IMG/VR virus record: IMGVR_UViG_3300006853_000031
Location: 1 to 39,377 of that record
Reading direction: 5' to 3' (one strand)
From: a virus
Length of the DNA stretch: 39,377 nucleotides
Shown: positions 37,310-39,377 of the stretch, piece by piece
Position numbering within the stretch: position 1 is the first letter of the stretch
How the letters are laid out: the number at the start of each line of letters is the position of its first letter
Position numbers and translations under genes: made by a program
The notes under the pieces: generated by a model
Told to the model about the DNA's origin: nothing
Databases searched by the model: none
What the model saw: the letters and a program-made list of their open reading frames with translations, nothing else

Positions 37310-37882
37310 TTATACTAGCTCTTTCCACTCGACAACGCGAAAACAGCCAAATGGACCAGATTTCTCAGGTCGGAAATCTCCTATTCCAACCTGCTCGCCA
37401 GCTTCGTTGAGCAGTTGATGAACCGTCTTTGGTTCAATAAGATTCTCGAAAATCTTGAGTTCGAATTCCGCCCGCCATTCGTCAAACCTGGGCCTATGCC
37501 GTAACACCCGACCTTTGGTAGCAGGGATTGTAACCGGTCTAGAATCGACCTCAAAATCCTTCTGGACTCGACCGTCTAGTTTCCGTAGTTTTACTGCGTC
37601 ATCTACGATCCGAACCGCGGCCGGGACAACATATTTCAGGCTTTTCCGAGACCCGCGTTGTTTGTGGGCCCCTCCGGCCGAAGCGATTGCTTTGGCGATT
37701 GAGTACCCGTTGAAGTACAGCCCGCCGTCTTGGTCCCTATAAGCGACCTTTTCGGCTTCTTCGCGAGGAACCCTCTGTTCAACCAATGTTGCGCGAGTTG
37801 TCCGCCCTGCCGCCGCTTCGTCACTAAATTTATGCATTAAATACGGGGATGTACCTTCGATCACTACTTTTACTGTTTTCAT
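37310..37882 (-). CDS. Conserved phage protein with GIGDFRP motif, probable nucleic-acid binder
   Basis: 190 residues from ATG 37882, chosen for GAGGA about 5 nt upstream (TGAGGACCACGATG). An in-frame extension to 38098 crosses the promoter and pentamer repeat and is noise. Landmarks are VKVVIEGTSPYLMHKFSDEA (4-23), EEAEKVAYRDQDGGLYFNGY (41-60), KQRGSRKSLKYVVPAAVRI (74-92), VDSRPVTIPATKGRVLRHRP (112-131) and the Gly-rich GIGDFRPEKSGPFGCFRVVE (166-185). I know the family from many phage genomes as uncharacterised. The ferredoxin-like opening strand and C-terminal glycine loop resemble RAMP/Cas7-type RNA-binding folds, and basic patches (RGSRKS, KGRVLRHRPR) would suit nucleic acid. That is inference. 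It has its own promoter and a 105-nt periodic leader. Confidence 0.75.
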   Translation of the reverse strand: MKTVKVVIEGTSPYLMHKFSDEAAAGRTTRATLVEQRVPREEAEKVAYRDQDGGLYFNGYSIAKAIASAGGAHKQRGSRKSLKYVVPAAVRIVDDAVKLRKLDGRVQKDFEVDSRPVTIPATKGRVLRHRPRFDEWRAEFELKIFENLIEPKTVHQLLNEAGEQVGIGDFRPEKSGPFGCFRVVEWKELV

Positions 37883-37886
37883 CGTG

Positions 37887-37991
37887 GTCCTCAGCCGAGC
37901 CATTCCTTGCTTTGCCGCGCCAAGCCCGACCTTGCCATACACGGCCAAACCAGACCTTGCATCGCCCCGCAGGGCCATGCCCAGCACAACT
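37887..37991 (-). repeat. 21-unit pentanucleotide (GGCNN-type) leader array
   Basis: Read on the - strand from 37991 to 37887, 21 consecutive pentamers all have G at position 2 (my hand count). Position 1 is G in 14, and position 3 is C in 14 and T in 5. Examples are GGCAT, GGCCC, TGCAA, GGTTT. The array starts at the predicted transcription start (about 37988) and its last unit, AGGAC, is the Shine-Dalgarno of the 37882 gene. It therefore fills the whole 5' leader. Read as codons it would give a 5-aa period (GMALR, GDARS, GLAVY...), but there is no start, so it acts as RNA or DNA. Confidence 0.8.
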
Positions 37992-37994
37992 ACT

Positions 37995-38022
37995 TTGATA
38001 AGACCTATGTTTGTTCTGTCAA
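37995..38022 (-). promoter_or_regulatory. Sigma70-type promoter for the 37882 gene
   Basis: On the - strand, a perfect -35 TTGACA (38022-38017), 16-nt spacer and -10 TATCAA (38000-37995; 4 of 6). It predicts transcription from about 37988, exactly where the pentamer array begins. It lies in the divergent gap next to the lysin gene, whose own promoter is not evident. Confidence 0.65.
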
Positions 38023-38045
38023 TCCCCGTAGCATACCCTTGGTAG

Positions 38046-38948
38046 GTGAACCGAAGAACCCTTTCTAGTCGCGCAATTGAACTATGTGGTGGTACCACGG
38101 GGTTTTCGATTTACGAGGATCCCGAGGGGTTCGGCCGCCTAACAACGGAAGGGCGATGGACCATGAAAGACGGTCACGGTCAGTACCTCTCCTGCTGCGA
38201 AGATCTTTTGTCTAGGCTGGCGCTCGAATGTGTCGACCTGAAGCAGAAGTGTCCTTGGGCCAACCGTAAAGACGGCGGAAATACTTGGCTTCCAGGTGAA
38301 AACTTAACCCGTGTAAAAAGATTCGCCGCCTACGCCTGGCGCGGCTACTGGCCGGGTTGTAGTTGGGACATCCGTATTGGCGACGGAGTCCAGGTTCTAA
38401 ACCGGTTCGGACCCCATAGTCTGATAGTAACCGAGATCTCCTACGACCCAAACGGCAACCCGGTAAGCTGTGATACGGCGAATTATGGCCAGTTCCATGC
38501 CGTAAATGGAAAGCCACCCGGACCGAGCTGCCGTCTATATATGTCTCAGACGGTTGCAAAGGACGCCCAGGGAAACTGGCGCATTGCGAACAACAAGATC
38601 ATTGGTCGCCTGGACCTATTAAAAATCCGCGAACACGAACTCGGCATCCCCGAAGAGCAGGACCTTGCCACCGTTCCGATGATTCCCGATATAGTTCCCC
38701 CGGGGGGCGACGGCGGTTCCGATGTCACCCGGGTGACGGAACCCGAAGTACGGTCGCTGAAGTTCTGTGTCCACGGCGATGACGTCAAGGTCTGGCAGGC
38801 GGTACTTAACCGAGACGGCGCCGGACTCAAGGTCGACGGGATTTACGGACAGAAGACGAAGAAGGCGACGCAGGCATGGCAGGCGTCACACGGGCTCGTA
38901 GCAGACGGTGTGGTCGGATCTAAGTCCCGATATGCGGCAGGGCTGTGA
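38046..38948 (+). CDS. Endolysin: Cys-peptidase-like N-terminus plus peptidoglycan-binding domain
   Basis: 300 residues. GTG 38046 is used because ATG 38163 would leave the catalytic Cys too near the N-terminus. The N-terminal domain has GHGQYLSCCEDLLSRLA (Cys50/Cys51), NTWLPGENLTRV (79-90), IRIGDGVQVLNRFGPHSLIV (109-128, His124) and a late DTANYGQF (143-150). That is the Cys...His...Asp/Asn layout of NlpC/P60- or CHAP-like amidases. A linker follows, then a PG_binding_1 domain at about 238-300 (HGDDVKVWQAVLN, VDGIYGQKTKKA, DGVVGSKS). It cuts peptidoglycan from the inside. The membrane protein behind it overlaps (TGATG). No secretion signal, so a holin is needed. Confidence 0.75.
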   Translation: MNRRTLSSRAIELCGGTTGFSIYEDPEGFGRLTTEGRWTMKDGHGQYLSCCEDLLSRLALECVDLKQKCPWANRKDGGNTWLPGENLTRVKRFAAYAWRGYWPGCSWDIRIGDGVQVLNRFGPHSLIVTEISYDPNGNPVSCDTANYGQFHAVNGKPPGPSCRLYMSQTVAKDAQGNWRIANNKIIGRLDLLKIREHELGIPEEQDLATVPMIPDIVPPGGDGGSDVTRVTEPEVRSLKFCVHGDDVKVWQAVLNRDGAGLKVDGIYGQKTKKATQAWQASHGLVADGVVGSKSRYAAGL

Positions 38949-39277: not shown

Positions 39278-39377
39278 ACTCTTCGGGTTGGGGTACGGCC
39301 GATTCGCCAACTGCGATAATCTCCTGAGCAATTGCGAGCGGCCCAGAGTCACCGGCTTTCTGGGCCGTCCGCCACTT
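39252..39377 (-). CDS. C-terminal end of an unknown gene (partial at right edge)
   Basis: The - strand frame is open from the right edge for 41 codons and ends at TGA (39254-39252). The fragment contains KAGDSGPLAIAQEIIAVGES then AVPQPEEFSLSADSL. Its composition is protein-like, and the frame is convergent with the 38948-39277 gene, overlapping it by 26 nt. Function cannot be told from this piece. Confidence 0.5.
   Translation of the reverse strand, partial: KWRTAQKAGDSGPLAIAQEIIAVGESAVPQPEEFSLSADSL

What the first reader, a model, noticed from the sequence alone, without database searches (positions are those of the whole stretch)
37887..37991. 105-nt leader made of 21 G-anchored pentanucleotides, ending on the Shine-Dalgarno
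On the - strand, 21 consecutive 5-mers have G at position 2, with GGC preferred (GGCNN). The array begins at the transcription start predicted from a perfect TTGACA promoter and ends as AGGAC, the ribosome-binding site, so it is the complete 5' leader. The sequences of the units differ, so this is maintained periodicity and not recent slippage. A strict 5-nt period is what a protein filament with a 5-nt footprint per subunit would read; some phage single-strand annealing proteins bind with similar steps. Model: the encoded protein (or a partner) oligomerises on its own mRNA leader and closes the ribosome-binding site, giving self-limiting expression. I know of no named regulatory element of this type.
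Basis: partly seen in the sequence, partly recalled or inferred. Interest (0 to 1): 0.9.

Follow-up and report, generated by a model that had tools for sequence, protein, structure and literature searches.

The report
Phage VIPR guide RNA and protein
The 5-letter rhythm is a guide RNA (vrRNA) of a VIPR system, a recently described RNA-guided silencing system that phages use against rival phages; here the guide is also the leader of the message for its own CRISPR-like protein.

Summary
On the - strand, 21 consecutive G residues stand exactly 5 nt apart (37990 to 37890); 200 Markov-simulated windows gave runs of at most 13. The gene behind it (37310-37882, phrog_4652) is predicted with high confidence to have the Cas7/Csm3 (RAMP) fold. 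Its profile matches PDB 36pp, "SUSP1 Vipr protein" (E 2.7e-40). Searching IMG/VR for GGYNN x10 without using the protein gave 120 loci, and 85 of them encode this protein, against 0/120 and 0/120 for period-4 and period-7 controls. In Felix O1-like phages the NN letters are randomised between phages whose genes are about 95% identical at third positions, and block lengths are multiples of 5. This is the VIPR system of a 2026 preprint (PMC13142463): a Vipr RAMP plus vrRNAs of alternating GGY/NN that recognise DNA by a gapped code. The window is a new, minimal member: one long vrRNA, no adjacent accessory gene found, and a guide tract that forms the whole 5' leader and supplies the Shine-Dalgarno sequence. 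Self-repression is not the general function (39 of 69 loci have arrays only downstream) but is not excluded for this leader-fused form. No natural target was found.

The parts
37887..37991 (-). vrRNA guide tract: 21 pentamers (N)GYNN; NN letters 5'-3': TG TG AT CC GG GA AA CT TT CG AT AA CG TT GC AA AA AT TC TG AC
   Evidence: same architecture in 370 blocks of 105 loci
37310..37882 (-). vipr gene, 190 aa, phrog_4652; Cas7/Csm3-like RAMP
   Evidence: phrog_4652 1.1e-22; profile of family hits PDB 36pp SUSP1 Vipr, E 2.7e-40; AlphaFold pLDDT 93.6; Foldseek prob 1.00 to Csm3; VIA Z 12.3
37887..37891 (-). AGGAC: last pentamer of the array, also the likely Shine-Dalgarno, 4 nt before ATG
   Evidence: sequence; homologue N-termini align at this ATG
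38017..38022 (-). TTGACA, perfect -35 hexamer
   Evidence: not reported by the consensus scan because of the weak -10
37995..38000 (-). TATCAA, weak candidate -10, spacing 16
   Evidence: sequence; inferred

Best explanation
The array is the guide (vrRNA) of a VIPR system and the gene after it is vipr. Transcription from the TTGACA promoter would make an RNA whose first ~105 nt are 21 GGY/NN-type repeats. Vipr, a small Cas7-like protein, would assemble on the repeats with one subunit per pentamer, reading the constant GGY letters and leaving the NN letters free. The 42 NN letters would then recognise a DNA target of the form NNxNNxNN... (one skipped base), predicted here as TGnTGnATnCCnGGnGAnAAnCTnTTnCGnATnAAnCGnTTnGCnAAnAAnATnTCnTGnAC or its complement, and silence a competing phage or element. 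Shown here: the array, the family and predicted fold, the linkage, and in relatives the 5-nt phase lock and the hypervariable NN. Taken from PMC13142463: RNP formation, the 1-nt skip code, silencing and inter-phage targets. Inferred: that this copy is expressed and works the same way.
For: Family profile matches SUSP1 Vipr (PDB 36pp) at E 2.7e-40, and the window protein matches phiSUSP1 by tblastn, 25.7% over 96%. Predicted Cas7/Csm3 fold: pLDDT 93.6, best PDB hits all type III/VII Cas7 proteins. Protein-blind GGYNN x10 search: 85/120 loci encode the family, against 0/120 and 0/120 for periods 4 and 7. Position letters in 5998 units: G 89%, G 97%, C/T 91%, then two near-uniform. 244 of 253 arrays lie on the strand of vipr, and in wV8, VpaE1, SUSP2, LESphi2 (40 kb read) and 60 kb of LittleE arrays occur only beside vipr. 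In 12 Felix-like phages third codon positions are 94.5% identical, but NN identity (median 0.46-0.50) equals the random expectation of 0.50; 48 of 49 flank-to-flank lengths are multiples of 5; some blocks are shared whole. The published system matches in its main visible features.
Against: No target of this guide found: three 8-unit seeds in IMG/VR extended to at most 27 of 42, and no self-target. 21 units exceed the 9-16 published for the SUSP1 and P. fulva clades. There is no space for a 3' tail before the ATG and no unusual fold. No accessory gene was found beside vipr. Position 1 is T or A in 7 of 21 units. The only close sibling is identical, so NN hypervariability could not be tested in this exact lineage.
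Confidence: 0.92

Rival explanations
1. Autoregulatory leader: Vipr coats its own 5' leader, covers the Shine-Dalgarno in the last repeat and limits its own translation; this is the only role of the array.
For: Array begins near the predicted start of transcription and its last in-phase unit is the Shine-Dalgarno in the window and in L109 (GGAGC tttt ATG).
Against: 39 of 69 loci have arrays only downstream of vipr, and upstream arrays end 4-204 nt from the start codon. Several independent blocks per locus and randomised NN letters make no sense for an operator.
Confidence: 0.04
2. TRAP-like RNA sensor: a ring protein binds the repeats and controls a transcript, with the NN letters as neutral spacers.
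For: TRAP also reads about 5-nt-spaced NAG repeats (general knowledge); median block length is 14 units.
Against: Predicted fold is Cas7, not TRAP. NN letters diverge to random while third codon positions stay 94.5% identical, which neutral spacers would not do. Published work shows guide function.
Confidence: 0.01
3. Coding or slippage artefact: the array is part of a longer reading frame (37310-38098, 262 aa) or a microsatellite.
For: The array is open in the vipr frame.
Against: Homologues start at ATG 37882; arrays also lie downstream of the gene; units are mostly distinct, and period-4 and period-7 hits are simple repeats while period-5 hits are not.
Confidence: 0.01

Closest known systems
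VIPR systems (Viral Interference Programmable Repeat; Vipr protein + vrRNA), PMC13142463, including its single-vrRNA systems
   Same: RAMP protein of the same family; GGY/NN pentamer tract beside the gene on the same strand; phage-borne; hypervariable NN in relatives; single-vrRNA systems are mentioned in the preprint.
   Different: 21 repeats instead of 9-16; the tract is the whole predicted 5' leader and supplies the Shine-Dalgarno; no room for a structured 3' tail before the start codon; no accessory gene found next to vipr; target unknown; type (I-VII) not assigned because the typing data were not available.
SUSP1 Vipr (PDB 36pp; Felix O1-like phages)
   Same: Same protein family, phrog_4652; GGY/NN blocks.
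   Different: About 26% identity; SUSP1-like loci carry several ~100-nt vrRNAs with tails, and the downstream gene phrog_5926 in the relatives read here.
Class 1 CRISPR-Cas effector backbone (Csm3/Cas7)
   Same: Cas7 fold; filament on a guide RNA is the shared logic.
   Different: No CRISPR repeats or spacers; 5-nt instead of 6-nt period; sequence-specific GGY scaffold; non-contiguous guide.
TRAP/trp leader
   Same: Protein reading evenly spaced short RNA motifs about 5 nt apart.
   Different: Unrelated fold, ring instead of RAMP assembly; no guide function.

Membership tests
VIPR system | Vipr-family RAMP protein | tested here: met
   Profile to PDB 36pp E 2.7e-40; all 55 members in phrog_4652; phiSUSP1 tblastn hit
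VIPR system | Single RRM-type RAMP (Cas7-like) fold | tested here: met
   Predicted model pLDDT 93.6; Csm3 and type VII Cas7 best matches, Z up to 12.3
VIPR system | G-loop and thumb placed as in RAMPs | tested here: inconclusive
   Conserved G162/G166/R171/G179 and a strand pair at 111-133 fit, but residues were not mapped onto an RNP
VIPR system | Tract of alternating GGY/NN pentamers (at least 9) next to vipr | tested here: met
   21 in-phase units ending 4 nt before the vipr ATG
VIPR system | NN positions hypervariable between related phages | tested here: met
   Met in the Felix-like clade; not testable in the window's own lineage, whose one sibling is identical
VIPR system | Structured 3' tail on the vrRNA (reported for SUSP1 and P. 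fulva clades, not for all types) | tested here: inconclusive
   No space before the ATG; array plus start of gene folds no better than shuffles
VIPR system | vap accessory gene (typical, not defining) | tested here: inconclusive
   No same-strand gene with a family match beside vipr in window or sibling
VIPR system | Target matching the NN letters with 1-nt skip | tested here: inconclusive
   Three seeds in IMG/VR gave only chance matches
VIPR system | vrRNA expressed and bound by Vipr; silencing | not testable with these tools
   Shown for SUSP1 and P. fulva in PMC13142463 only
CRISPR-Cas class 1 | CRISPR array of identical direct repeats with spacers | tested here: not met
   No repeat array at the locus; units differ
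TRAP | TRAP fold | tested here: inconclusive
   Predicted fold matches Cas7 over residues 1-190 and no TRAP is among the listed matches; a direct comparison with TRAP was not made

The most novel reading that the evidence does not exclude
Leader-fused VIPR: the guide RNA is the complete 5' untranslated leader of the vipr message, and Vipr assembling on it closes the Shine-Dalgarno in the last repeat, so each transcript is either guide or message and the system balances protein against guide by itself.
Probability: 0.25. Interest if true: 0.65.

Novelty: new member of a known kind. Interest (0 to 1): 0.5.

Why it matters
VIPR is the first reported non-contiguous guide code and a proposed ancestor of CRISPR RAMPs. 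This window adds a very small version (one gene of 190 codons plus its own leader) from a phage lineage with no match to named phages at this locus. It lets one ask how short the machinery can be, whether a tail or an accessory gene is needed, and how guide and message share one transcript. The protein-blind array search shows that the array alone is a good detector for such systems.

Tried and rejected
Self-target or own-genome target with several pairing models (NN with target period 2-7, YNN, GYNN): nothing above shuffles or neighbours, and a Felix block searched in 17 phage records gave only itself. Target seeds for the window guide and for L109 in IMG/VR: chance only. Skip 0-3 comparison on 5.5 Mb held: skip 1 had the most blocks at E<0.1 (27 against 10, 16, 8) but none clear, so not claimed; an earlier run was spoiled by simple repeats from bacterial contigs. 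Rfam: no match at the locus. Pfam, NCBIfam, PADLOC: no family for Vipr apart from one weak Csm3 hit. Bacterial genomes by array pattern: mostly simple repeats, 4 of 10 diverse ones with the protein. Literature before the PDB lead: nothing. The composition table included some bacterial contigs and is replaced.

Full report
OBSERVATION. The 105 nt at 37887-37991 on the - strand do consist of 21 pentamers with G at position 2. The longest step-5 G run in 200 simulated windows was 13, and the array is unique in the window and in the 69-kb sibling contig L001/G001. The last unit AGGAC is the likely Shine-Dalgarno of ATG 37882. The -35 is a perfect TTGACA but the -10 is weak and the promoter scan does not call it.

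PROTEIN. The gene 37310-37882 belongs to phrog_4652, unknown function, without a Pfam family. A 55-member alignment gave an AlphaFold model of pLDDT 93.6 and pTM 0.87. All best matches in the PDB are Csm3, type VII Cas7, Cmr or Cas7-11 domains (Foldseek prob 1.00, E 3.6e-6; VIA Z 12.3 over 159 residues). A profile search of PDB sequences found entry 36pp, 'SUSP1 Vipr protein', at E 2.7e-40.

LINKAGE. Homologues at 25-59% identity carry GGY/NN arrays near the gene. Control patterns of period 4 and period 7 gave 0 of 120 each, and their hits were mostly simple repeats (1-3 distinct units for nearly all), whereas period-5 hits mostly have 7-9 distinct units out of 9. Arrays lie on the strand of the gene (244 of 253). 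Of 69 non-redundant loci, 11 have them upstream only, 39 downstream only and 19 on both sides. In wV8, VpaE1, SUSP2, LESphi2 (40 kb read) and LittleE (60 kb read) they occur only beside this gene.

CODE-LIKE VARIATION. Over 370 blocks and 5998 units the letters are G 89%, G 97%, C/T 91%, then two nearly uniform positions; median block length is 14 units, 66% of blocks have 9-16, 15% have 21 or more. In 12 distinct Felix O1-like phages the gene pair is 94.5% identical at third positions and the flanks 90-94%, yet NN identity at the best offset (median 0.46-0.50) equals that of random blocks (0.50); 3-5% of pairs share a whole block. 48 of 49 flank-to-flank lengths are multiples of 5. This pattern says that GGY is a scaffold and NN carries swappable information.

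KNOWN SYSTEM. A 2026 preprint (PMC13142463, bioRxiv 2026.04.26.720920) describes exactly this as VIPR: a phage-encoded RAMP with vrRNAs of 9-16 YNNGG repeats, NN letters pairing with double-stranded DNA with one skipped base, silencing of satellites and prophages, seven types, some with one vrRNA. My inferences up to one search were made before that paper was found, and they agree with it. The pairing models I tried blind did include the published one (NN, period 3).

THIS MEMBER. The window and its close relatives L002, L109 and L087 have a single upstream array; L073 has one upstream and one downstream. In the window and L109 the last in-phase repeat is the Shine-Dalgarno. The window has no same-strand neighbour with a family match, and its neighbours on the + strand belong to a run of virion and lysis genes, so vipr sits as a self-contained unit between them. 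A guide of 21 NN pairs predicts a 62-nt target; three 8-unit seeds found nothing beyond chance in IMG/VR. That is not evidence against targeting, since the real rival may not be in the collection.

MECHANISM. Most likely: promoter, guide-leader transcript, Vipr coating of the repeats, recognition of a gapped DNA target, transcriptional silencing of a competitor. Shown here: array, predicted fold, family, linkage, and in relatives phase lock and variability. From the preprint: RNP, code, silencing. Inferred: activity of this copy.

Noticed in passing
L008 1747-1799, 1880-1930, 3200-3245, 3338-3392 (Mycobacterium phage LittleE): Spacers between vrRNA blocks resemble tRNA minihelices (outer stem, 11-nt loop, T-arm with TTCGAGT or TTCGATT loop); for the first two the predicted fold shows it. 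Possible RNase P/Z processing of the array; not mentioned in the main text of the preprint.
   Followed up: partly
L006 2601-2924 (Gordonia phage UmaThurman gene 40): Annotated hypothetical gene overlaps the 34-unit GGY/NN array, so it is probably not a protein gene.
   Followed up: no
window 39303-39306: The window end joins two stretches that lie about 505 nt apart in the otherwise 100% identical sibling L001: a deletion or an assembly difference.
   Followed up: no
L009 2591-3031, L005 3582-4073, L008 2582-3148; L007 2847-3269, L006 2940-3362: Two small gene families of unknown function follow vipr directly or closely: phrog_5926 (gammaproteobacterial phages and a mycobacteriophage) and phrog_15946 (actinophages and others); candidates for vap genes.
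   Followed up: partly
L100 3396-3843 (reverse orientation): Seven blocks joined by the constant string GGCTAATG or close variants, with no other spacer.
   Followed up: no
L026, L060, L108, L112, L125: Very long arrays with scores of 50 to over 130 units, far beyond one published vrRNA; how they are divided is unknown.
   Followed up: no
L002 1877-2806 and 914-1858: In this relative the array lies directly behind a recT-like gene and a YqaJ-like exonuclease gene (names from the translated sequence, not tested).
   Followed up: no
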